Of a stretch of DNA of 64,000 nt, positions 24,048-50,183 are shown one piece after another. The position numbers and the translations under genes are program-made. Source of the DNA: Macrotis lagotis (lineage: Eukaryota > Chordata > Mammalia > Peramelemorphia > Peramelidae); NCBI RefSeq assembly GCF_037893015.1, contig NC_133665.1, positions 105,119,937-105,183,936 on the forward strand. Reading direction: 5' to 3'. The notes under the pieces are model-generated. The model saw only the letters and a program-made list of their open reading frames with translations, had not been told where the DNA came from and searched no databases. Numbering within the stretch: the first letter of the stretch is position 1; every line of letters begins with the position of its first letter.

Positions 24048-24366
24048 TTTAAAGAAACATTTTATTTATTGTGAGTTTTATAATTTTTTCCCCTAATCTT
24101 GCTTCCTTCCCCCACCCCCCACAGAAGGCAGTCTGTTAGTCTTTACATTATTTCCATGGTATACATAGATCTAAGTTGAATGTGATGAGAGAGAAATGAT
24201 ATCCTTTAGGAAGAAAAATAAAGTATAAGAGATAGCAAAATTATATAATAGGATAAAGGTTTTTTTTTCCTAAATTGAAGGTAATCGTCGTTGGTCTTTG
24301 TTCAAACTCCACAATTCTTTCTCTGGATACAGATGGTATTCTCCATCACAGATAGCTCAAAATTAT
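24048..24366 (-). mobile_element. L1 LINE 3' end, 5'-truncated
   Basis: Near-consensus copy of the L1 3'UTR block in reverse, ending abruptly at about 24366, where a sense L1 fragment begins. Confidence 0.85.
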
Positions 24367-25292
24367 CAGGTTGGCCAGTATGACAAAAAAGGGAAATGAT
24401 CAATATTGAAGGGGATGTGGGGAAACAAATGTATTGTTGATGGAGTTGTGGACTTATCCAACCCTTCTAGAGAGCAATTTGAAATTATGCCCAAAGGCCT
24501 ATAAAATTGTTCATGTCCTTGGATCCAGTTATACTACTAGATCTGTATCCCAAGAAATCACAACAAAGGGTAAAAAAACCCACATGTACAAAAATATTGA
24601 TAGCAACTCTTTTCAAAGTAGTAAAGATTTGGAACTTGTGGGAGATGCCCATTAGTTGGGGAATGACTGAACAAACTGTGGTATATGAATGTGATGGAAC
24701 ACTATTGTTTTATAAGAAATCATGAGGACAGGACTTAAGAATAGTCTGGAGGAGCCAAGATGGCAACAAGAAGGGATCGAGTCTTAGGGGCTCTCTGAAA
24801 AAAATTTGAAACTAAGGACTCTAACTAAACTTTTGAGACACAGAACCCACAAAGGGACCCAGAGAGGCAGTTCTCCTACTCAAGGTAACCTGAAAAAGAG
24901 CAGAAAGGCTCTGTTCCCCCGGGGTTGGAGGGGGGGGCCCACCCCTCTGGTGGGCCGCCAGAGCGAAAGAACTTCAGCCTCCCAGAGGCAGCCCCAGGGC
25001 GCTGGGAGCTTCAGTTCACAGCAGCGGGGGAGTCTCCTGAGCTGCACCCCAGGGAGCACCGGGCACAAAGTGGGGGAACAGTGGGGGACCTCTGCCAGAG
25101 CGAGCACGTGGAGCCCAGCCCTCAGGGCACACAGGGAGCAGCATGGTCTTTCAGCAGCAGCCCTGTGGCAGAGGAGGGTGCTTAAGGTCATTCACAGACC
25201 AGGAGGGAGGACAGAGCCTCACACACTGAGACCCTTGTGGGAGTATCCCAAAAGCTCAGGAAGCACCGCAAAACCAGGCCCAGGCTGGGAAA

Positions 25293-26402
25293 ATGAGCAA
25301 GCCAAGAAACAAGAGGAAGACCATTGTGAAATATTTGCTTATGAGCCCAAGAAGGATCAAAATATTCAGTCTGAAGATGAGGAAGCACAAGCTCCTGCAT
25401 CTAGACTCCAAGAAAAACAGAAATTGGGCTCAGGTTATGACAGAGCTCAAAAAAAGACTTTGAAAATCAAATGAGGGAGTTAGAAGAAAAACTGGGAAAA
25501 TAAATGAGAAAGATGCAGGAAAAACATGAAAATGAAGTCAGCAGCTTAGTCAAGGAAGTACAAAAAAATACTGAAGAAAATAGCATGCTAAAAACCAGCT
25601 TAGGACAAATGGATAAAACAGTTCAAAAAGTTATGAGGAGAAGAATGCTTTAAAAAGCAAAATTGGCCAGATGGAAAAAGAGATAAGAAAACTCTCTGAG
25701 GAGAACAAATCCTTCAGACAAAGAATAGAATTCAGGGAGATTGATGAATTTACCAGAAATCAGGAATCAATACTTCAAAACCAAAAAAATGAAAAATTAG
25801 AAGAAAATGTGAAATATCTCATTGAAGAAACAACTGCTATGGAAAACAGACTTAGGAAAGATAATTTAAAAATTATTGGAATACCTGAAAGTCATGATCA
25901 GGAAAAGAACCTTGACATCATTTTCAAAGAATTACTACAGGAAAATTGCCCTGATATTCTAGAAGCAGAGGGCAAAATAGAAATGGAGAGAATCCACCAA
26001 TCCCCCCGAGAAAGAGATCCCAAAAAACCAACCCCTAGGAATATCATAGCCAAGTTCCAGAACTCCCAAGTCAAAGAGAAAATATTACAAGCAGCCAGAA
26101 GGACACAGTTCAAATATTGTGGAGCTTCAGTCAGGATCACACAGGACTTAGCAGCAACTACAGTGGAAGCTCGTAGGGCTTGGAATACAATATACTGGAA
26201 GGCAAAAGAGCTTAGAATGCAGCCAAGAATGAACTACCCAGGAAGGCTGAATGTCCTCTTCCAGGGAAAAAGATGGACTTTCAGTGAACCAGGGGAATTT
26301 TAGATGTTCCTTTTGGAATGGCCAGAGCTGAACAGAAGGTTTGATCTTCAGATACAGGACTCAGGTGAAGCATGGAGATTGGAGGAGAGGGGGAAAATAT
26401 GA
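25293..26402 (+). pseudogene. L1 ORF1p pseudogene in half-L1 copy 1
   Basis: About 369 codons in the original frame, from ATGAGCAAGCCAAGAAAC to a TGA at 26400. The N-terminus is basic, followed by a heptad-rich coiled coil, then the RRM-type part (LKIIGIPES) and the C-terminal domain with NIIAKFQ, KEKILQAARR, SVRITQDLAATT and QPRMNYPGRLNVLFQG. ORF1p is the trimeric RNA-binding chaperone of the L1 particle. It is broken by an early single-base frameshift near 25340, an in-frame TAA near 25501, another frameshift near 25636 and a premature TAG at 26301-26303. The longest intact stretch is 25671-26303 (210 residues). Confidence 0.88.
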
Positions 26403-26884
26403 GGGACTTAATGATGATGAACTGCATGTATTCCTGCATAGAAAAATGACACTGATAATACTCATATGAACCTTCTTAGTTAACAGAGCAGGTAGAGGGA
26501 GCTTTTATAGTTGAAGCACAGGAGAAAGCTGAATTCGAAGATAAAATATGGTGTAAAAATGGAGTCAATACAAAGAAAAGGGAAATTTAATGGGAGAAAG
26601 AAAAAGGAGAGGGGGAATAGGAAAGATATTTCATATAATAAGATTTTTTTATTACAATGAGCTATTGCAGTGATATGGAAGGGGGGAGGCAAGGGGGAAT
26701 GAGAGAACCTTTTCTCTCATCAGAGGTGGTTAGGAGAGGAAACAGCATATATACTCAATGGGGTATAGGCATCTGGAGTAAGAAGGAGGGGGGAGCAGGG
26801 GGAAGGGGTGGGGATATGAATAAAGGAAGAGAGGATGGACCATGGGGGGAGAGTGGTCAGATACAACACATTTTCTTTTTTACT

Positions 26885-27024
26885 TCTTTCAAGGGGCTGG
26901 GATTGGATAGCCTGTCCAGGACCATGGGGCCAGGTGGATTCTGGGCCTAAGGGGTGTTATGGGGGCCCAGGGCTTCTTGGCCCCAGGACCAGGGATCTGT
27001 CTGCTGCACCACTCAGCTACCCTA
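26885..27024 (-). mobile_element. Embedded SINE-derived module A (copy 1)
   Basis: aaggggctgggattgg at the tail end and ctgctgcaccactcagctac at the head end align with the antisense WSINE sequence, strongly diverged. The matching module in copy 2 lies at 32957-33095. Confidence 0.65.
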
Positions 27025-27227
27025 CAGCAGAGTCAGAGTGAAAGGAAAGAGAAAATATAGTACATGGTAGTGGAGAAACAAGAAAGGAGGGAGTTGTGAT
27101 CAGCAATGGCAAAGTTGGAAAAATATGGAAGTAACTTTTGTGATGGATTTATTATAAAGAATATGATCCACCCATGACTGAGTTGTTGGTGTTGGAACAA
27201 AGACTGAAGAACATTTTTTATTATTAT

Positions 27228-27328
27228 TATTTGGGGGAGGGTACAGGGCAAATGGGGTTGGGTGGCCTGACTGGGGCTACATAGCCTGGCTCAAGGGCCA
27301 ATGCTCTGTCCACTACCCAGCCACCCCT
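27228..27328 (-). mobile_element. Embedded SINE-derived module B (copy 1, internally deleted)
   Basis: cagggcaaatggggttgggt and ctctgtccactacccagcca are antisense SINE ends. About 45 bp of the middle, present in copy 2 at 32607-32745, are missing here. Confidence 0.75.
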
Positions 27329-27374
27329 ACTATTATTACTACTTTATTTTATTTTGGGTCTTTTTTTTTTCTTC

Positions 27375-27520
27375 GTTTTGGTTTTTGCAGGGCAGTGGGG
27401 ATCGGGTGGCTTGCATGTCACACGGCTGGGTGATTGTTGGGTCTATGGGGCTGGACGTGGGCTTGGGTGCTCATGGCTCCAGGGCTGGTGCTTCATCCAT
27501 TGCGCCACCTGGCCATACCT
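27375..27520 (-). mobile_element. Embedded SINE-derived module C (copy 1)
   Basis: ggtttttgcagggcagtggg through to ccattgcgccacctggcc is a full-length antisense SINE. Most differences from the genomic SINE are A-to-G on this strand. It is nearly identical to 32415-32565 in copy 2. Confidence 0.85.
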
Positions 27521-28609
27521 ACAATTATTAGTATTATTTTTTTTTATTTTAATTTTTTTCTCTCCCCTTTACTTTATCGCTCAATCAAGTCTATATTCAT
27601 GAGGGGGAAGAGGGTATTTTGTTTACTCTTAAACAAGAGTATTTTATTAATGTATAAAAAAAGCATTTGTACAAAATGAGAATAAAAAAAAAAGAATAGT
27701 CTGGAAAGACTTGCATAAACTGACGCTGAGTGAAGTGAAAAGAACCAGAACATTATATACACTAACAGCAACATTGGATGATGATCAACTATGTGGTCTT
27801 GTACATTTCAGTAGTGTAATAATCAAAGACAATTTGAGAAGACTTGTGATGGAAAAATGTCATCCATTTCCAGAGCAGGAACTGTGGAATTTAAATGTAG
27901 ACCAAAATTAATATCTTCAATTTTTAAAACTTGTTTTATGTATTATGTCTTTTGTTTTCTCTCTAATATTTTTTCCTATATGGAGTTGATTCTTCTTTCG
28001 CAACATGATTAATATGGATTTATGTTTAGCATGATTATACATGTATACCTTATATTAAATTGCTTTCAATTGGGGGAGGAGAGGGGAGTGAGGGAGAAAA
28101 ATATAAAACTCAAAACCTTGCAAAAATGATTAGTAAAAATTATAATTACATGTAGTTGGAAAAATAAATAAATAAAATATTTTAAAAATTATTCTAAAAC
28201 AATACCAGGAATTCTCTTGATATTTTATTAATAATGATTATTGTAGTTTAAACGGATACCTAGTGGAATGCTGGTGGCACTATACTGAGGATGAAGAAGA
28301 CAGTAGTGAAATGGTTGTTTGTCAATTAGATATGTTTGGAAACAGCATTGAATTTGGAGCCTAAGAGCATTCAATTATAAATTTATTGCTTATATTAGAA
28401 TGTGAATTCTTTGAGAACAGACTGTCTTGCTTAAATAGGTGCTCAATAAGTACTTTTTAAATTCATTCATTCGGTATCCTCTGGTTAGCTTATAAATAAT
28501 TTTCCTTGTCCATTAAATGAAGGGTTGAACTCAATGATCTCTAAATACTGTGACTCCAGAATTTAATTGGCTCAAAATATCTCTTAATTTGAAGCATATA
28601 TTACTCTTT

Positions 28610-28774
28610 TTTTTTTTTATTTTTTTGCAAGGCAATGGGGTTAAGTGGCTTGCTCAAGGCCACACGGCTAGGTGATTATTAAGTATCTGAGGTTGGATTT
28701 GAACCCAGGTACTCCTGACTCCAAGGCTGGTGCTCTATCCACTGCGCCACCTATCCGCCCTATTTTTTTTTTTA
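28610..28774 (-). mobile_element. WSINE1-type SINE next to an IHO1 splice acceptor
   Basis: Reverse full-length copy flanked by atattactcttt at 28598-28609 and 28775-28786. Its boundary is 30 bp from coding exon 2, so the duplicated target now forms part of that exon's pyrimidine tract. Confidence 0.95.
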
Positions 28775-28804
28775 ATATTACTCTTTATTTTTATTTTATT
28801 CCAG

Positions 28805-28976
28805 GACCAATAAATCATCTAGCTGGAATAATAATGTTGATTGCTCCAACCTCACTGATTCCCAGTTCCTCTTTGGGTCCCAGTTCTATCCAGAGAATTC
28901 ACAATCAATTTCAGCACCTTTGGACTTCAATCCCTCCTTGAGACATGCCAAAACTTCACAACAGAATTCTGAGGAT
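28805..28976 (+). CDS. IHO1: IHO1 (CCDC36) coding exon 2
   Basis: 172-nt exon between attttattccag (AG at 28803-28804) and gtaagt at 28977. Entering phase 2 joins GG of the first exon to G, giving glycine 19, followed by 57 codons (residues 20-76) and a phase-0 end. The reading frame is fully open. The product contains S-W-N-N-N, a conserved block DSQFLFGSQFYPEN, then SAPLDF and a serine/glutamine-rich end (TSQQNSED). This agrees with the N-terminal region of mammalian IHO1 as I remember it, which is disordered and low-complexity upstream of the coiled coil. Because the length is not a multiple of three, skipping would shift the frame. The exon lies between two large inverted half-L1 copies and directly downstream of a SINE. 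Confidence 0.92.
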
Positions 28977-29094
28977 GTAAGTCTGATTTACATAATTTGT
29001 TTGCAATCATTTCACCATTCTTATGGAAAGTAGGATATATGTTTTTTGTTTTGTTTTGTTTTGTTTTTGCAGTGGGAGACCTTGATCTTTTATA

Positions 29095-29255
29095 TCTGAG
29101 GTCTTTAAGTTTTACAATTTTCCCCCTATTCTTGCTTCCCTCCCCCCTCACCCCCCCACAGAAGGCAGTCTGTTAGTCTTTACATTGTCTATAGTCTATA
29201 GTCTATACATGGTATACATTGATCTAAGTTGAATGTGATGAGAGAGAAATCAAGT
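29095..29255 (-). mobile_element. L1 LINE 3' end fragment
   Basis: Antisense L1 3'UTR block beginning 120 bp downstream of coding exon 2. A small ctatagt triplication near 29190 is private to this copy. Confidence 0.8.
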
Positions 29256-29827
29256 ATGTATGTTTTTTAAAAATTGTTTAAATAGTCTTAGGAAGTATAC
29301 ATCTCAAAGAATAATATTTCAAGAGAATTTACTAAATTGATGAGTGATTTGCTTGCTTAGATGTAATGGAAAAACAATTTATTTTTGTAGTTACTTTTGT
29401 TATGTAATAATGGAATTATGCCAAATATGTTTGGGCTTCAGCTTTTCTTGGGGAAAGTCAAATATTGCATTACTTTTTCTGAGACCAGTAATGCAATTTT
29501 GCTTATAAGATTTTGTAGAGGGAGGCTTACTGAGAGGTGCTTGGTAATATAGTAATATGTATTTTTCTTCTTGACAACAAAATTTTCTAAGAAGCTCCAG
29601 GTGATTTGTAGACTTTAGATATTGCCTCTTTCTAAAAGATTCACTTAAAGAAAGTGAATATTCAGAGGAGACAAATGAGACATAGTGGAGAGATTTGTCC
29701 ATTTATATTATGTGACTCAGTACCTATACCCAGAATAGCTTCTAAATCTCTTAAATCTTTAATCATTGTTAATTAGTCTGTTTTTTTGCTCCCTAGTGTT
29801 CACTGTTGCACCGATTAAATTGAGAGA

Positions 29828-29874
29828 CAGAAAGAGAAAAGGAGAGAGAGGAGGAGGAGGAGGAGGAGGAGGAG

Positions 29875-29938
<64 letters not shown>
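29828..29938. repeat. 111-bp pure purine tract, (GGA)n(GA)n
   Basis: From agaaagagaaaagg through eight to nine GGA units and about 25 GA units to gagaaa, the + strand has no pyrimidine. Mirror symmetry makes intramolecular triplex formation possible. Confidence 0.95.
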
Positions 29939-29941
<3 letters not shown>

Positions 29942-30400
29942 CATGATGCATTTGTGTGGGACAAATGCCACTTAAATAAATTTTGGAGATCTCTCAAGGT
30001 ATGAAGAGAACGGGCCATAATCAATCACAGAGATTGAAGCAAAAGCAAAAGGCCCAAGAATCACATTTATCCTAACTCAATTCCAGCCCCACACTGACCC
30101 ACCCTCATTAATGAGGAATGTGGTTTTACAATCTAGACTGCAAGATAATCTAAGGAAAAGAGCATAAAATTCAAACTGAAACCAGATAATCTCTTCAACC
30201 CCAGGGATTGAATGGTCATCCCAACTTCTACAGATAAAGTGGGGTTAGTTGACTCTTCACCAATATTCCAGAGGTTGCTTTGTCAAGGGAGGAGAGACAC
30301 ATAGTTATCTATTCTCCAATCTATAATATTCAACTGAAGAAATCTCAGACTTTATTCCACTCACATTGGAAATAGCATTGGAGGGTGGTGAGGTGATGAG

Positions 30401-30550
30401 GTGGTGAGGTGGCGCAGTGGATAGAGCACTGGTCCTGGAGTCAGGAGTATCTGAGTTCAAATCCAGTCTCAGACACCTAATAATTACCTAGGTGTGTGGC
30501 CTTGGGCAAGCCACTTAACTCCATTTGCCTTGCAAAAAAAACAAACAAAC
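30401..30550 (+). mobile_element. WSINE1-type SINE
   Basis: ggtgaggtggcgcagtggat to ccttgcaaaaaaaacaaaca. The first bases are altered by a small gaggtggtgaggtgg stutter. Confidence 0.92.
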
Positions 30551-31644
30551 CAGGAAATGGCTTTGGACTTGGTTTCAGGAAAGCTGGGTTCAGTTCTTTG
30601 CTCTATTACTTCCTGGTTTTGAGTAAACTATTTTCTAAATTTTAATGCCTCAAAGAAATGTAAGTTATCATTTATTATAATATTTTTCAGGTTCACCTTT
30701 GCATTTGATGAAGGTTTAGTGACTTAAGGACCTAGATCATAAACTAAACCCTCCAGAGGAATTTCAGTGCTAAAATTGAGACCCAAGTTAATGTACTTCT
30801 CAAGGCATATAAACTTTGAGTTTGGATTATGAAGGCAGAAAAGAAACTTGTCAATTGTGTATGTCATTGAGATGTTTTTGATAGAGACCTATCAACACAA
30901 TTACTGAGTTGCATCTGAGCAGGAGCAATTAAAATTAAATAAATACATGAAATGTAACCTACCACTTTCCCAAACACTACTATTAAGAATTCACTGTTGT
31001 TTCCTGAAATGTATACAGTTGGCATTAAGCCATTTCATCTGAAAGATTTTTACATCCCTTAGTACTGCATTAGAAGCTTAACTGGGCAAAAAGAGCTCCA
31101 TTTCATATTTTTTCAATTAACAGATATTTGTTTTTTCTAAAGTTCCCTCAATCTCCATACAATCCCCTTTTTCTAGTCCCATCTGAAAAAAAGAGAAAAA
31201 CAAAACCCTGTAACACAACATGTATAATCAAGCAAAACAAATGTACTCATTGGCCATATCAAAAATATATGCCTTAATTTGAATCTTAAGTTTATCACCA
31301 TTCTTGGCAGGAGTTGTACAGCATGTTTCATCATAGGTTCTCTGGAATTGTAGTTGTTCACTGTGTTGATTAGAGTTCTTTTTAAGATCCTTCAAAGTTG
31401 TTTGCCTTTATATTGTTGTTGTACTATATATTTGTTTTATTGGTTCTGATTACTTTATTCTACATTATATCATGTAAGTATTATCATTTCTTATGACCCA
31501 ATAATATTCCATTATATTAATGTACAATAATTTGCTTAGCCATTCTTCAGTTGATGGATACTTCCTTATTTTCCATTTCTTTGCCATTATAAAATAGCTA
31601 CCTGCTATTTGCATATAAAGATCCATTACCTTTTTAATTTCTTT

Positions 31645-32174
<530 letters not shown>

Positions 32175-32414
32175 TCAAAAACTGTACCAGTTAGTGCCTT
32201 TTAATCATAGTAGCTCAACCAACAGTTCATTAATTTTCCTGTTTTCTTTTTTCTTTTTTATTCTCATTTTGTACAAATGTTTTTTTACATCAATAAAATA
32301 TTCTTCTTTAAGAGTAAACGAAATACCCCCTCGCCCATGAATATAGACTTGCTTGAGCGATAAAGTAAAGGGGAGAGAAAAAAAATTAAAATAAAAAAAT
32401 TATACTAATAATTG

Positions 32415-32565
32415 TAGGTATGGCCAGGTGGTGCAATGGATGAAGCACCAGCCCTGGAGCCACGAGCACCCAAGCCCACATCCAGCCCCCTACACCCAAC
32501 AATCACCCAGCCATGTGACATGCAAGCCACCCAATCCCCACTGCCCTGCAAAAACCAAAAAGAAG
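32415..32565 (+). mobile_element. Embedded SINE-derived module C (copy 2)
   Basis: ggccaggtggtgcaatggat to ccctgcaaaaacc on the + strand. It shares nearly all its derived changes with module C of copy 1. Confidence 0.85.
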
Positions 32566-32606
32566 AAAAAAAAAAGACCCAAAATAAAATAAAGTAGTAA
32601 TAATAG

Positions 32607-32745
32607 TAGGGGTGGCTGGGTAGTGGACAGAGCATTGGCCCTTGAGCCAGGAGTACCCAGGTCCAAATCCAGCCTCAGACACCCAAAGATCACCCTGTTT
32701 TGTGGCCCCAGGCAGGCCACCCAGCCCCATTTGCCCTGCACCCCC
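32607..32745 (+). mobile_element. Embedded SINE-derived module B (copy 2, full length)
   Basis: ggggtggctgggtagtggac to gccccatttgccctgcac, including the middle part missing in copy 1. Confidence 0.85.
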
Positions 32746-32956
32746 CAAAAATAATAATAATAAAAATTGTGCTTCAGTCTTTGTTCCAACACCAACAACT
32801 CTGTCATGGGTGGATCACATTCTTTATGGTAAGTCCATTGCAAAAGTTACTTCCATATTTTTCCAGTGTTGCCATTGCTGATCGCAACTCCCTCCTTTCA
32901 TATTTCTCCACTACCATGTACTATATTTCTCTCTCCTTTCACTCTGACTCTGCTGT

Positions 32957-33095
32957 AGGGTAGCTGAGTGGTGCAGCAGATAGATCCCTGGTCCTGGGGC
33001 CAAGAGGCCCTGAGCCCCATACCACCCCTTAGGCCCAGAATCCACCTGGCCTTATGGTTCTGGACAGGCCTTCCAATCCCAGCCCCTTGCAAGAA
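32957..33095 (+). mobile_element. Embedded SINE-derived module A (copy 2)
   Basis: gggtagctgagtggtgcagc to agccccttgcaag. It interrupts a half-L1 3' region that is continuous in the older relative near 40240. Confidence 0.7.
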
Positions 33096-33579
33096 GTAAA
33101 AAAGAAAATGTGTTATATCTGACCACTCTTCCCCCATGGTCCATCCTCTCCTCCATGACTCACATCCCCCATCTTCCTCCTGTCCCCCCCTCTCCTTCTT
33201 ACTCCAGATGTCTATACCCCATTGAGTATATATGCTGTTTCCTCTCCTAGCCACCTCTGATGAGAGAAAAGGTTCCCTCATTCCCTCTTGCCTCCCCCCT
33301 TCCATATCATTGCAATAGCTCATTGTAACAAAGAAAAATCTTATTATATGAAATATCTTGGCCTATTCCCCCTCTCTTTTTTCTTTCTCCCATTACATTT
33401 CCCTTTTTTTCTATTGACTTCATTTTTACACCATATTTTATCTTCGAATTCAGCCTTCTCCTGTGCTTCAACTATAAAAGCTCCCTCTACCTGCTCTATT
33501 AACAGAGAAGGTTCATATGAGTATTATCAGTGTCATTTTTCTATGCAGAAATACATGCAGTTCATCATCATTAAGTCCC

Positions 33580-34695
33580 TCATATTTTCCCCCTCTCCTC
33601 CAATCTCCATGCTTCACCTGAGTCCTGTATCTGAAGATCAAACCTTCTGTTCAGCTCTGGCCATTCCAAAAGGAACATTTGAAATTTCCCTGGTTCATTG
33701 AAAGTCCATCTTTTTCCCTGGAAGAGGACATTCAGCCTTCCTGGGTAGTTCATTCTTGGCTGCATTCTAAGCTCTTTTACCTTCCAGTATATTGTATTCC
33801 AAGCCCTATGAGCTTCCAATGTAGTTGCTGCTAAGTCCTGTGTGATCCTAACTGCAGCTCCACGATATTTGAACTGTGTCCTTCTCACTGCTTATAATAT
33901 TTTCTCTTTGACTTGGGAGTTCTGGAACTTGGCTATGATATTCCCAGGGGTTGGTTTTTTGGGATCTCTTTCTCGGGGGGATCGGTGGATTCTCTCCATT
34001 TCTATTTTGCCCTCTGCTTCTAGAATATCAGGGCAATTTTCCTGTAGTAATTCTTTGAAAATGATGTCAAGGTTCTTTTCCTGATCATGACTTTCAGGTA
34101 TTCCAATAATTTTTAAATTATCTTTTCTAAGTCTGTTTTCCATAGCAGTTGTTTTTTCAATGAGATATTTCACATTTTCTTCTAATTTTTCATTTTTTTT
34201 GGTTTTGAAGTATTAATTCCTGATTTCTGGTAAATTCATCAATCTCCCTGAATTCTATTCTTTGTCTAAAGGATTTGTTCTCCTCAGAGAGTTTTCTTAT
34301 CTCTTTTTCCATCTGGCCAATTTTGCTTTTTAAAGCATTCTTCTCCTCAATAACTTTTTGAACTGTTTTATCCATTTGACCTAAGCTGGTTTTTAGCATG
34401 CTATTTTCTTCAGCATTTTTTTTTGGATTTCCTTGACTAAGCTGCTGACTTCATTTTCATGTTTTTCCTTCATCTCTCTCCTTTCTTTTCCCAGTTTTTC
34501 TTCCAACTCCCTCATTTGATTTTCAAAGTCTTTTTTGAGCTCTGTCATAGCCTGAGCCCAATTTCTGTTTTTCTTGGAGTCTTTAGATGCAGGAGCTTGT
34601 GCTTCCTCATCTTCAGACTGAGTATTTTGATCCTTCTTGGGCTCATTTGCAAAATATTTCTCAATAGTGTTCCTCTTATTTTTCTGCTTGCTCAT
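33580..34695 (-). pseudogene. L1 ORF1p pseudogene in half-L1 copy 2
   Basis: The original frame spans about 371 codons. Four readable pieces in order are: the basic N-terminus plus first coiled coil (34695-34393), more coiled coil (34399-34190), the RRM-type region with LKIIGIPESHDQ (34173-33892), and the C-terminal domain with AAVRITQDLAATTLEA and QPRMNYPGRLN, then a tail ending GEAWRLEERGKI (33888-33580). Frameshifts near 34395 and 34180 and a stop near 33890 separate them. The tail here is intact, which shows that the premature stop in copy 1 is private to that copy. Confidence 0.88.
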
Positions 34696-35777
34696 TTTCC
34701 CAGCCTGGGCCTAGTTTTGGGGTGCTTCCTGAGCTTTTGGGATACTCCCACAAGGGTCTCAGTGTGTGAGGCTCTGTCCTCCCTCCTGGTCTGTGAATGA
34801 CCATAAGCGCCCCACTCTGCCACGGGGCTGAGGTGGGGGGGGGGCCCTGCTGTTCTATGGGGGGGGGGGGCCTAGACTGGGATCAGGATCTGAATGTGGT
34901 CAGAGCCCCAGAGTCCTGTTCTAGGGGCAGAGGATAGAGCTCTGCTATCTCTTGTCAATCCCCTCCCTCAGCTCAATGGGCTCGTGCCCTGAAGGCTCCT
35001 GCTTACCAGCTCCACCTGCTTCTGTTTCTGGATCTGGGCTGCCAAAAGACCAAGCTGCTTGCTGTGTGCCCTGAGGGCTTGGCTCCACTTGCTTGCTCTG
35101 ACAGAGGTCCCCCTGCTGTTCCCCCACTTTGTGCCCAGTGCTCCCCAGGGTGTAGCTCAGGAGACTCCCCCACTGCTGTGAGCTGGGGCTCCCAGCTCCC
35201 TGGGGCTGCCTCTGGGAGGCTGAAGTTCTTTCGCTCTGGCAGGCCACCCCTCTGCTGGGCCACCCCTCCGACCCCGGGGAGCAGAGCCTTTCTGCTCTTT
35301 TCCAGGTTACCTTGAGTAGGAGAACTGCCTTTCTGGGTCCCTTTGTGGGTTCTGTCTCCTGAAAGTTTAGTTAGAGTCCTTAGTTTAGAAGTTTTATCAG
35401 AGAGCGCCTAAGACTGAATCCTTTCTTGTCTCCATCTTGGCTCTGCCCCCCAACAATTCAATTTTCCTGTTTTCTTATAGTCCCTCCAATATTTGTCATT
35501 TTTATATGGTTATTAAAGACTTAGATTAAAGGCTTTGAAAATTATCCCTTTATAATCTTCCAATTCTGGAATGACTTGCTTTCTTATAAATTTGAATTAG
35601 TTCCTTATTTATGTTAGAAATGAGATTTTTATCAGAGATGCTTGCTGCAAATACTTTAAGCAGGAAACTCTTTGGTTTTATGCAAAAGCTTTTAATCATT
35701 CACAGTTTTAAGTGTTTATTGTGTAACTACCCTCCATCCTATTCTTTTATATTTTTTCTTTTCTTGGATCCCCCTTC

Positions 35778-39939: not shown

Positions 39940-41895
39940 GTTTTTTTTAACTGACTTTTTTTGGTTTATTTTATATTATTACAATAATATTGTTGTGAAA
40001 GTAAACATAAATCCCCCTCCCCCCAGTAAGATGAGAAACTTCAAGAATAGTGAGAGAGAAAAAAAGTGTACTTTGGTCTGTGTTCAGATTCCAACAGCAC
40101 TTTCTCTGGAATGGGTTGGCTTCTTTATCATAAGCCCACCAGACAAGTTTGCTTCAATATTTTTCCCACAGTTGCTATTACCAGCTGTATTTCCCTCTAC
40201 TCTATTCCTCCCCGCTCTTATTTATTCCATTCTCTCATTCTGTCCTTGTTCAAAAGTGTTATATCTCAGTACCCTCTCCCATGATCTTCCCTCTCTTCTA
40301 TCATCTACTCCTTCCTTTCCTTCCCCCATTCTCCCTTACTGCATACCTTTCCTCTCATTTTTCTCTAGGGTAAGATAGATTTCTGTACCCTATTAAATGT
40401 GTATGTTATTTCAACTCTGAGCCATTACTAATGAGAATGAAGGCTCACTCATTGCCCCTTGCCTTCCCCAGTTCCACTCCATTGTGAAAGATTTTTCTTG
40501 ACTCTTATATGAAATACTTTAACCCCTTCTTCCTCTCCTTTCTCTTCCTCCCAGTACTTTCCTTTATCACCCACTTTTTGCTATATTATACTATTATATT
40601 ATTCCCTCCTATGCCTTATATATGTTCCTTCTAACTGCTCTTATAAATGAGAAAGTTCATATGAGTTATCAGTATTTTCTTCTCATACAAACAGTTCAAC
40701 ATCATTAAGTTCTTCATAATTAGTCCTTCTCATCCACCCCCTCTATGGCCCACCTGAGTCCCATACTTGGAGCTCAAACTTTCTCTTCAGCTCTGGTTGT
40801 TTTAATAGGAAAGCTTGAAAGTCCTCTGTTTCATTGAAAGTTTATCTTTTCCCCTGAAAAAGGATGTTCAGTTTTTCTGGGTAGTTGATTCTTGGTTGTA
40901 AGCCAAGATCTTTTGCCTTTCCAAGCCCTTAATGTAGATGCTGCCAGATCCTGTGTAATACTGCCTATAGAGCCATAGTAGTTGAATTGTTTGTTTCCTG
41001 GCAGCTTTTAGCATTTTCTCTTTGACTTGGGAGTTTTGGAATTTGACTATAATATTCCTGAAAGCCTTTCTTTTGGAATCTCTTTTGGAAGGTGATAGTG
41101 AATTCCCTCAATTTCTATTTACCCTCTCCTTCTAGGAACTCAGAGCAATTTTGCTGTATTATTTTTTGAAAAATGAGGTCTGGGCTCTTTTCATGGTTGT
41201 GACTTTCAGGTATCCCAATAATTTTTAAACTATCTCTTCTGGATCTGTTTTTGAGGTCAGTTGTGTTTCCAATGAGTTATTTCACATTTTCTTCTAATTT
41301 TTTTTTTGGTACAGTTTTATTTCTTCCTGATTTCTTGCAAAGTCATCAACTTCCTTTAGTTCCATTCTGCACTTGAAGGAGTTATTTTCTTCAGAGAGCT
41401 TTTTTATCTCCTTTTCCAGCTGCCTAATTCTGCATTTTGAGGCATTCTTCTCCTCATTTGCCTTTTGGGTTGCTTTTTTCCATTTGGCCTAAACTGGTTT
41501 TGGACATATTATTTTCTTCAGTATTTTTTTGTATTTCTTTCACCAAGCTTTTGACTTGGTTTTCATGATTTATCTGCATTGCTCTCATTTCTCCTCCCAA
41601 TTTTTCCTTTACCTGCCTTAATTGCTTTTCAAAGTCTTTTTTGAACTCATTTATAGCTTGAGCCCATTTTTCTATTTCTCTTGGAGGTTTTGGATACAGA
41701 AGCTTCAACTTTGTCATCTTCTGAGTATGTATTTTGGTCTTCCATGGTACCAAAGTAATTTTCTATGGTCATATTCTTTTTTTATCCTGTTGTTTGCTCA
41801 TTTCCTCAGCCTATGACTGATTTACCACACTTCCAAGGCTTTGGGAGGTTTTAGGGATAATCCACAGGGACCTTAATTCCTTCAAGGTCTTGTGA
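39940..41895 (-). mobile_element. Older half-L1 relative (copy 3), 5'-truncated
   Basis: Collinear with copies 1 and 2 but far more diverged: a partial 5'UTR (to about 41895), ORF1 remnant, then a 3' region directly, with no ORF2. Shared 3' landmarks with copy 2 include tccaacagcactttctctgg versus ccaacaccaacaactctgtc, gttatatctcagtaccctct versus gttatatctgaccactcttc, and ccattgtgaaagatttttct versus the cattgtaacaaagaaaaatc equivalent. SINE module A is absent at the homologous site. Confidence 0.75.
40790..41810 (-). pseudogene. L1 ORF1p pseudogene in half-L1 copy 3
   Basis: A heptad-rich fragment is readable at 41753-41454 (WAQAINEFKKDFEKQLRQV, NHENQVKSLVKEIQKNTEEN, SLGQME), matching the coiled coil of the other copies. 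The RRM-type and C-terminal parts (about 41280-40790) are recognisable only in pieces, with many frameshifts and stops. Confidence 0.75.
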
Positions 41896-49303: not shown

Positions 49304-50183
49304 CTAGATTTCACTGACCTCTTCTGATTCTATTCCAAATTTCCTACTCAGATCTGGTCTTTCTATCAAAAAATCTTCAAAATCTTCTACTGTATTAAAT
49401 GTCCATTTTTTCCCATGTATCATTATACCCAGTTTTGCAGGGTATTTTATTCTTGGCTGTAAGCCCATGTCTTTTGCCTTTCTAAATATTTTATTCCAAG
49501 ATTTCCCTCTCACTTATAGTGGAATCTGCAAAGTCTTACATGATCCTGACTGTCACTCCTTGATATTTGAACTGCTTGATTTTGGATTCTTGTAATATTT
49601 TATCTTTGACATGGGGATCAAGAAGTTTTACTATGACATTCCTAGATGTCTTTATGTGGTGATTTATTAGAGGAGGTGACCTATGAATTATTTCTATATC
49701 TCTTCTACCTTCTGGTCTTAACAAACGTGGGCAGTTCTCACTTACGATTTCTTGAGATATAGTATCCAAGCTTTTGATTATATCAATATTTTCAGGGAGA
49801 CCAATTATTTTTATATTATCTCTTCATGACCAATTCTCTCTGGTTTTAGATACCAGATATTTCACATTTTCTTCTTCATGTTTTTCAATCTTTTCACATT
49901 GTTCTACCATTTCTTGCTGTCTCCTGGAGTCATTCAATTCTATTTGATCTATTCTTCTTTGCATTGACACCATTTCTTCATTGATGTCTACCACTTTCTC
50001 TTTTAAGTTGTTTATTATACTTCCAATTCTTTCTTGTAGATCTTTTATTTCATTCTTTATATCTTGCTTCATTTCTTCTAGGAATTCCCGAAGTCCTTGA
50101 GGAAAATCCATTTCTTCCTTTACTGTGGAATTTCTTCCTTCTTCTGGGATATCTTTAGGTTTGATACTGGTTGTTGTTTTCAT
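49304..50183 (-). pseudogene. L1 ORF1p pseudogene, second half-L1 type
   Basis: Three readable parts in order: coiled coil with EFLEEMKQDIKNEIKDLQER and MQRRIDQIELNDSRRQQE (50183-49824), an RRM/linker part with RNVIVKLLDPHVKDKILQE and FKYQGVTVRIM (49769-49536), and the C-terminal domain with QPRIKYPAKLGIMIHGKKW (49513-49304). Frameshifts and stops lie between them. Total about 290-300 residues, shorter than the 370 of copies 1 and 2. Confidence 0.85.

What the first reader, a model, noticed from the sequence alone, without database searches (positions are those of the whole stretch)
24751..35459. Two full-length ORF1-only retrotransposons define a composite half-L1 family
Seen: both copies have a YY1-type 5' end, target-site duplications, a 370-codon ORF1 ruin, no ORF2 at all, and the same 1.3-1.5 kb 3' region containing three antisense SINE-derived modules. 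Known: HAL1 elements are L1 derivatives with ORF1 only. Inference: fusion of a half-L1 with several SINE modules makes a composite non-autonomous element, comparable in logic to SVA, which I do not know to be described.
Basis: partly seen in the sequence, partly recalled or inferred. Interest (0 to 1): 0.85.

Follow-up and report, generated by a model that had tools for sequence, protein, structure and literature searches.

The report
Half-L1 retrotransposon carrying edited SINEs
Two jumping-gene copies in this marsupial window belong to a family that keeps only the first LINE-1 gene and carries three captured short repeats, which look as if its RNA had been enzymatically edited before being copied back into DNA.

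Summary
Both copies are HAL1 (half-L1) elements: L1-type 5' end, target-site duplications, decayed 370-codon ORF1, no ORF2, and three antisense SINE modules (A, B, C) in the 3' region. The window's assembly, very likely greater bilby, could be searched, and the architecture is a family trait. Of 22 copies read, 22 have ORF1, 20 have A, B, C and tail, 15 a clear target-site duplication. A tail 30-mer has 2,902 genomic matches (control 0). In 30 loci fetched by the 3' end alone, none has ORF2 between ORF1 and tail. A related older family, with a member in the window at 40.0-41.8 kb, lacks all modules, so WSINE1-type SINEs were captured later.

Of 52 WSINE-type copies outside the modules none has more than 1 of the 11. 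This is an ADAR-like (A-to-I editing) footprint, fixed by retrotransposition. New variant of a known kind. No RNA data; Repbase and Dfam not available.

The parts
24751..27691 (+). HAL1 copy 1: 5' region, ORF1 relic, 3' region with modules A, B (incomplete), C, A-rich tail
24737..24750 (+). target-site duplication, left (AAGAATAGTCTGGA; the last base or bases may be element)
27692..27705 (+). target-site duplication, right
25293..26402 (+). ORF1 relic of copy 1 (broken; family reading frame 370 codons)
26886..27024 (-). module A, antisense CORE-SINE, most diverged
27231..27327 (-). module B, antisense WSINE-type SINE, about 46 nt missing in this copy
27380..27514 (-). module C, antisense WSINE-type SINE
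32248..35447 (-). HAL1 copy 2, full length, all three modules
33580..34695 (-). ORF1 relic of copy 2
32957..33093 (+). module A of copy 2 (SINE sense is +)
32609..32750 (+). module B of copy 2 (SINE sense is +)
32422..32556 (+). module C of copy 2 (SINE sense is +)
32232..32248 (+). target-site duplication of copy 2, one side
35460..35476 (+). target-site duplication of copy 2, other side
39980..41823 (-). older module-free HAL1 relative: ORF1 relic plus the same 3' region without A, B, C

Best explanation
A HAL1 lineage (L1 ORF1, no ORF2), very likely in the greater bilby, took up three antisense WSINE1-type SINEs in the 3' region of its source elements and went on amplifying as a composite of about 3.2 kb. 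Shown: shared architecture, target-site duplications, A-rich tails, intact ORF1 in some copies, no ORF2 in the copies read, a module-free older family, and a one-sided A-to-G change in the modules. Inferred: L1 ORF2p moves it in trans; ORF1 was kept because it serves its own RNA; the SINEs entered one by one; and, early on, the antisense SINE part of the HAL1 RNA paired with sense SINE RNA (or with a sense SINE in the same transcript), was A-to-I edited by ADAR, and an edited RNA was reverse-transcribed into the copy that founded the later family.
For: Family: 22 of 22 copies have ORF1, 20 of 22 have A, B, C and tail, 15 of 22 a clear target-site duplication; 2,902 tail matches, control 0; 0 of 30 3'-end loci and 0 of 22 elements with ORF2 inside. 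Before capture: 37 of 40 scored hits of the module-free relative span the region without modules. L062 has A and B but no C. ORF1: intact 370-aa frames in L020 and L023, Pfam hits, dN/dS 0.11 against an L1 ORF1. Editing: in the majority modules A, B, C G stands at 53, 53 and 62% of WSINE A's, against mean 3.7% and maximum 11.1% in 52 WSINE-type copies outside the modules. In 8 modules of five more distant copies A>G is 114/238 and T>C 3/247. B ancestor: 11 A>G and 1 T>C; the 11 are all 7 TA and all 4 AAG sites. Outside the modules the 3' region shows no such one-sidedness (A>G 57/267, T>C 30/173). All 149 module-like SINE places in the held sequence lie beside HAL1 sequence.
Against: No RNA or protein data. 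The WSINE consensus (22 window copies) is assumed to stand for the SINE that inserted. The TA/AAG rule was seen after the fact. Module A is too diverged to show it cleanly (7 of 11 rule sites are G, but so are 9 of 19 others). C has 5 further A>G, 3 of them after G, which ADAR disfavours; pooled, A's after G are changed 8/12 in the majority modules and 15/32 in the more distant ones. CA sites are little changed there (8/85), which needs CpG decay or site preference as an extra assumption. Copies were chosen as best matches, not at random. Only 5 of the 40 hits of the module-state query could be read. Variants shared inside the family give no clear sign of selection on ORF1 (ratio 0.85).
Confidence: 0.78

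Rival explanations
1. The modules came from a distinct SINE subfamily that already had these states; no editing took place in HAL1.
For: Modules B and C share 11 A>G sites, and C's set contains B's, as descent from one source would give. Only 5 of 40 hits of the module-state query were read, so a rare free subfamily is not excluded.
Against: Of 209 SINE places in 304,539 held bases, 149 are closer to a module than to WSINE, and all 149 have HAL1-specific sequence within 450 nt on the right strand. Of 52 WSINE-type copies, 39 have none and 13 have one of the 11 states. The 5 hits read all carry the HAL1 3' tail or its flanking stretch. A SINE lineage evolving 11 changes of one class on one strand would itself need a cause.
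Confidence: 0.15
2. Selection, not editing: the family lost UpA dinucleotides or duplex-forming ability in the modules by ordinary mutation.
For: All 7 TA sites of the module B ancestor are gone.
Against: In the majority modules 21 TA dinucleotides became TG 14 times, CG twice, CA once, others 4. In the more distant copies 54 of 56 A's of TA are G while T>C is 3 of 247. The 4 AAG sites are not UpA. A-to-G leaves G-U wobble pairs, a weak way to break a duplex.
Confidence: 0.07
3. Ordinary nesting: unrelated SINEs fell independently into two dead HAL1 copies.
For: SINEs do fall into old repeats; the window holds over 20 WSINE copies.
Against: Same sites, same order, same orientation and the same derived bases in 20 of 22 copies from several contigs.
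Confidence: 0.01
4. An autonomous L1 first captured the modules, and these copies are its ORF2-deleted derivatives.
For: HAL1s in general derive from L1; ORF1 is 71.7% identical to a bilby L1 ORF1 over 569 nt.
Against: 0 of 30 loci fetched by the 3' end holds ORF2 inside the element; the module-free relative already runs from ORF1 straight into the same 3' region; the one L1 3' end read here (L059) shares nothing with HAL1 apart from a neighbouring SINE.
Confidence: 0.05

Closest known systems
HAL1 (half-L1) retrotransposons of mammals (Bao and Jurka 2010, not held; seen only as cited in passages of PMC5753468 and PMC5322556)
   Same: L1-type ORF1, no ORF2, A-rich tail, target-site duplications; dependence on L1 inferred
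   Different: Three captured antisense SINEs fixed in the 3' region of a family with 2,902 tail matches, with directional A-to-G change
SVA and LAVA composite retrotransposons of apes (abstract starts, passages)
   Same: Composite, non-autonomous, presumably L1-moved
   Different: Keeps an L1 ORF1; its SINE parts lie antisense in the 3' region; SVA is built of Alu- and HERVK10-derived parts and tandem repeats (passage)
WSINE1 CORE-SINE of Australian marsupials (PMC3403934, passages)
   Same: Nearest relative of the modules: tRNA-related part, CORE, poly(A) (naming from that paper and recall; no library match was run)
   Different: Modules lie antisense inside HAL1 and are A-to-G changed in HAL1 sense
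ADAR editing of inverted SINEs in 3' untranslated regions (PMC5974252, PMC5192505, passages)
   Same: Antisense SINE in a 3' region, A-to-I type change, 5' neighbour preference
   Different: Here the change is fixed in the DNA of a retrotransposon lineage and inherited by later copies

Membership tests
HAL1 | Encodes an L1-type ORF1 | tested here: met
   370-aa frames in L020 and L023; PF02994 E 3.3e-11 and 1.3e-13, and PF17490
HAL1 | No ORF2 | tested here: met
   0 of 22 elements and 0 of 30 3'-end loci with ORF2 between ORF1 and tail (query lacks the N-terminal part of ORF2)
HAL1 | Poly(A) tail and target-site duplications | tested here: met
   15 of 22 with a clear duplication, 7 of 22 without; A-rich tails
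HAL1 | Depends on L1 reverse transcriptase | not testable with these tools
   needs a retrotransposition assay
SVA-type composite | Non-autonomous mosaic of parts from different repeats, amplified as a unit | tested here: met
SVA-type composite | VNTR, hexamer and SINE-R parts | not tested
   no such parts were looked for; not filed as SVA
WSINE1 (modules) | Sequence relation to the genome's WSINE-type copies | tested here: met
   62% (A), 73% (B), 73% (C) identity to a consensus of 22 window copies; up to 88% in more distant HAL1 copies
ADAR editing footprint | Cluster of A>G on one strand with few changes of the reverse-strand class | tested here: met
   114/238 A>G against 3/247 T>C in 8 modules of five more distant copies
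ADAR editing footprint | 5' neighbour U or A favoured, G disfavoured | tested here: inconclusive
   Met in the B ancestor (TA 7/7, AA 4/8, CA 0/11, GA 0/4). In pooled counts T is strongly favoured, but G is not the least favoured: GA 15/32 against CA 8/85, GA 8/12 against CA 10/32
ADAR editing footprint | Double-stranded RNA substrate and editing seen in RNA | not testable with these tools
   no RNA data held

The most novel reading that the evidence does not exclude
A-to-I editing created the founder: the captured antisense SINEs made HAL1 RNA form double-stranded RNA with SINE RNA, ADAR rewrote them, and the edited copy, now poorly complementary to SINE RNA and so less visible to double-stranded-RNA sensors, was the one that spread. 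RNA editing would then have acted as a heritable, adaptive mutation step in a mammalian retrotransposon lineage.
Probability: 0.35. Interest if true: 0.88.

Novelty: new variant of a known kind. Interest (0 to 1): 0.72.

Why it matters
It gives a readable case of the assembly of a composite retrotransposon: a module-free family, a copy with A and B but not C, and the complete state, all in one genome. If the editing reading is right, it is also a fossil of RNA editing passed into the genome and multiplied to thousands of copies. That would make the question whether ADAR editing shapes retroelement evolution, and not only their RNAs, directly testable by sequence.

Tried and rejected
Ongoing editing: not supported. 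Private changes in 22 copies show no A>G excess in the modules (A>G 1, 3, 0 against T>C 3, 2, 7 in A, B, C), so the change predates the spread. APOBEC-type change: rejected, since it would be G>A and that class is low. Purifying selection on ORF1 inside the young family: not shown (ratio 0.85 for shared, 1.02 for private changes). HAL1 3' region derived from the L1 inter-ORF region: suggestive by eye only; alignment scores do not clearly exceed shuffles (27 against mean 25.8; 36 against mean 27.2 with maximum 51). The 'breaks' near query position 2280 looked at first like copies with something else after ORF1; reading ten of them with copy 2 as query showed that seven run on to the tail, two end early with an A tail, and L013 is rearranged or L018 broken in its 5' part. 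My first form of one argument, that none of 60 free SINE places is closer to a module than to WSINE, was circular, because the 60 were picked by that score; one search replaced it: all 149 module-like places lie beside HAL1 sequence, while 4 of the 60 WSINE-like places do too and may be among the 52 used as comparison. Bao and Jurka 2010 is not held. Genome searches did not complete because the machine stayed busy: a 5'-part query (not repeated); a search for copies with A but without B and C (not repeated); module junction counts (and 79, not repeated); the count of the module core over the genome. Others were busy at first and answered later: answered at 11; 28; 46; 77; the RT-domain search was answered at 48, where I asked for no loci.
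Full report
What is in the window. Copy 1 (24751-27691, +) and copy 2 (35447-32248, -) are inverted to each other; BLAST pieces are 88% (first 400 nt) and 92% (the rest) identical. Each starts with the L1-type GAGCCAAGATGG, has a broken ORF1 frame (25293-26402; 34695-33580), no ORF2, and a 3' region with three antisense SINE-like modules ending in an A-rich tail, between target-site duplications. Copy 1 lacks about 200 nt of 5' region and about 46 nt of module B. Copy 1 sits inside an older L1: sequence on both sides matches the ORF2 end and 3' part of the bilby L1 L059.

Which genome. The window is G000:C8:105119937-105183936 in an assembly of 3,655,600,598 bases and 607 contigs, with C1 of 934,355,481 bases. 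The greater bilby paper (PMC11239497, passages read) reports 3.66 Gb, 609 scaffolds and chromosome 1 of 934,426,298 bases, so this is very likely Macrotis lagotis. That paper gives L1 as 20.91% of the assembly, and the term HAL1 occurs 0 times in its main text.

Is it a family? With copy 1 as query 40 places were scored out of 26,624 first-look candidates. I fetched 20 of the 40. Together with the two window copies, ORF1 is covered in full in 22 of 22. Modules A, B, C and the tail are found in 20 of 22 (B incomplete in copy 1; L013 rearranged; L018 weak in B and without most of the 5' region). L009 and L016 stop before module B with an A tail and a target-site duplication. A clear target-site duplication was found in 15 of 22. 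The mean difference from the majority sequence is 4.35%, including L018 at 12.8%, whose 5' part is not element; mean pairwise identity is 92.6%. At the rate of 0.0045 per Myr used for WSINE1 in the Tasmanian devil (PMC3403934, passages) this would be roughly 9 to 10 million years, a rough figure. These copies were the best matches, not a random sample.

Test from the other end. A 333-nt 3'-end query gave 40 scored places of 3,155 candidates; 30 were fetched, the two window copies among them. In 23 of 30 the match runs from the tail into ORF1 up to, or within 8 nt of, the edge of the locus. L032 also reaches ORF1 but has a deletion over part of module A. Six are 5'-truncated, L045 with a further small deletion. 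ORF2 similarity occurs in 8 of the 30 loci, outside the element in each (in L036 it begins some 27 nt before the end of the element's match), never between ORF1 and tail; L038 is a 5'-truncated copy lying inside an L1 ORF2. A tail 30-mer with up to 3 mismatches has 1,447 + 1,455 = 2,902 matches, against 0 for the reversed control.

ORF1 and L1. L020 and L023 hold intact 370-aa ORF1 frames with the L1 domains PF02994 and PF17490. Against the ORF1 of an L1 whose RT domain was found nearby (L060, 3' part of the frame only) the DNA identity is 71.7% over 569 nt and dN/dS is 0.11, with dS near saturation. So ORF1 was kept under selection over much of the separation, though this does not say on which branch; inside the young family no selection is visible. 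Among 150 scored RT domains (65,591 candidates) the longest listed open frame is 860 aa, so no complete L1 ORF2 was seen in that list. L059, the one L1 whose 3' end I read, has a different 3' end from HAL1.

How the composite was built. At 41823-39980 (-) the window holds a related element with ORF1 and the same 3' region but without A, B or C. It stands for an older family: of 40 scored places of its 781-nt 3' part (10,961 candidates; the query's own place included) 37 span it from position 17 or less to 771 or more within 776-816 bases, so without room for modules; all but the query itself are 80-83% identical. L062 has part of A, a B-type module and then the tail, without C; this is either the state before C or a loss. 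The modules are relatives of WSINE1, described as a CORE-SINE with poly(A) tail (PMC3403934, passages; the name rests on that paper and recall): 62, 73 and 73% identical to a consensus of 22 window copies. SINEs were therefore captured, all antisense, by HAL1 source elements that stayed active; that it was one by one is likely but rests on L062.

The A-to-G signature. Read in HAL1 sense, the majority modules A, B and C have G at 53, 53 and 62% of the WSINE adenosines, while T>C is 23, 23 and 13%. In 52 WSINE-type copies of at least 100 nt, A>G on the same strand has mean 3.7% and maximum 11.1%. In the HAL1 3' region outside the modules, the comparison with the older relative shows A>G 57/267, T>C 30/173, G>A 37/189, C>T 17/75, so no such one-sidedness. 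By 5' neighbour, the majority modules have A>G at T 17/18, A 15/22, G 8/12, C 10/32. Private changes in the 22 copies show no A>G excess in the modules, so the process ended before the family spread.

Did a free SINE already have these states? I searched with the WSINE consensus carrying the module states: 40 scored candidates of 5,133, each with a match at 90-93% identity, five with a second match at 85-89%. I could read 5 of the 40 (L061-L065). All 5 carry the HAL1 tail or its flanking stretches and are only about 70-79% (short stretches up to 88%) like the young majority, so of older or more distant type. In their 8 modules A>G is 114/238, T>C 3/247, G>A 9/271, C>T 19/254. By 5' neighbour, A>G is T 54/56, A 37/59, G 15/32, C 8/85. 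CA sites that were edited would become CpG and may have decayed back, so the C class is hard to judge. In 304,539 held bases, 209 SINE places were found: 149 closer to a module, and all 149 have HAL1-specific sequence within 450 nt on the right strand; 60 closer to WSINE, of which 4 also lie near HAL1.

A conservative ancestor of module B, taking the WSINE base wherever at least two of five members keep it, differs from WSINE by 11 A>G and 1 T>C and nothing else over 127 columns. The ancestor of C, made the same way, has the same 11, 5 more A>G (3 of them after G) and 5 other changes. The 11 sites are all 7 TA and all 4 AAG adenosines; the other 19 adenosines are unchanged. The rule was noticed after the fact, but it is like the known ADAR preference: upstream G is depleted at editing sites (PMC2873906, passages), ADAR1 and ADAR2 share a 5' preference and only ADAR2 has a 3' one (PMC5192505, passages); the order U, A before C, G and the 3' G are recalled. 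Of the 52 WSINE-type copies, 39 have none and 13 have one of the 11 G's. The members of both modules keep most of the 11 (10 or 11 of 11 G in the more distant copies, with one site missing in L063; 7, 10, 10 in the young A, B, C).

Mechanism. An antisense SINE in the 3' region of a Pol II RNA can pair with sense SINE RNA or with a sense copy in the same transcript; inverted SINEs in 3' regions are edited by ADAR and activate MDA5 when unedited (PMC5974252, passages). Inosine is read as G by reverse transcriptase (general knowledge), so one edited HAL1 RNA, once retrotransposed, would give the B ancestor. That the edited copy succeeded because it had lost complementarity is conjecture. Against: no RNA evidence; module A is too diverged to judge (7 of 11 rule sites and 9 of 19 others are G); C shows changes after G; ADAR1 has been reported to restrict L1 without editing it (PMC5192505, passage).

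Literature. Ten searches of the held open-access library were made: 7, 8, 13, 61, 63, 64 on HAL1, marsupial and composite elements; 70 and 73 on ADAR and retroelements; 40 and 80 on the bilby. I saw the listings (titles and starts of abstracts) and passages of some papers; none of what I saw describes a HAL1 with SINE modules. Bao and Jurka 2010 is not held. PMC5753468 and PMC5322556 (passages) describe HAL1 as ORF1-only and L1-dependent. Zaranek et al. (PMC2873906, passages) expect integration of edited retrotransposons back into the genome to be rare. Absence from print or from Repbase and Dfam is therefore not shown.

Verdict. A real composite HAL1 family, a new variant of a known kind, with an unexpected editing-like footprint that deserves a full genome scan.

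Noticed in passing
window 31719-32102 (-): Processed pseudogene of ribosomal protein L27 (Pfam PF01777, E 3.5e-35), next to HAL1 copy 2; a stop follows at codon 129.
   Followed up: partly
window 24366-24727 and 27701-27823: Older L1 3' part that HAL1 copy 1 split by its insertion.
   Followed up: yes
L009 and L016: Two copies end before module B with an A tail and a target-site duplication: early polyadenylation or internal priming, so B and C are not needed for insertion.
   Followed up: partly
L062: HAL1 copy with A and a B-type module but no C: either the state before C or a loss by recombination between B and C.
   Followed up: partly
genome G000, RVT_1 hits: Among 150 scored RT domains the longest listed open frame is 860 aa; no complete L1 ORF2 was seen in that list, so L1 activity in this species is worth checking.
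   Followed up: no
window 49394-49894 and 48359-47085 (-): Another L1-type ORF1 piece and ORF2 pieces, rearranged, with SINE insertions.
   Followed up: no
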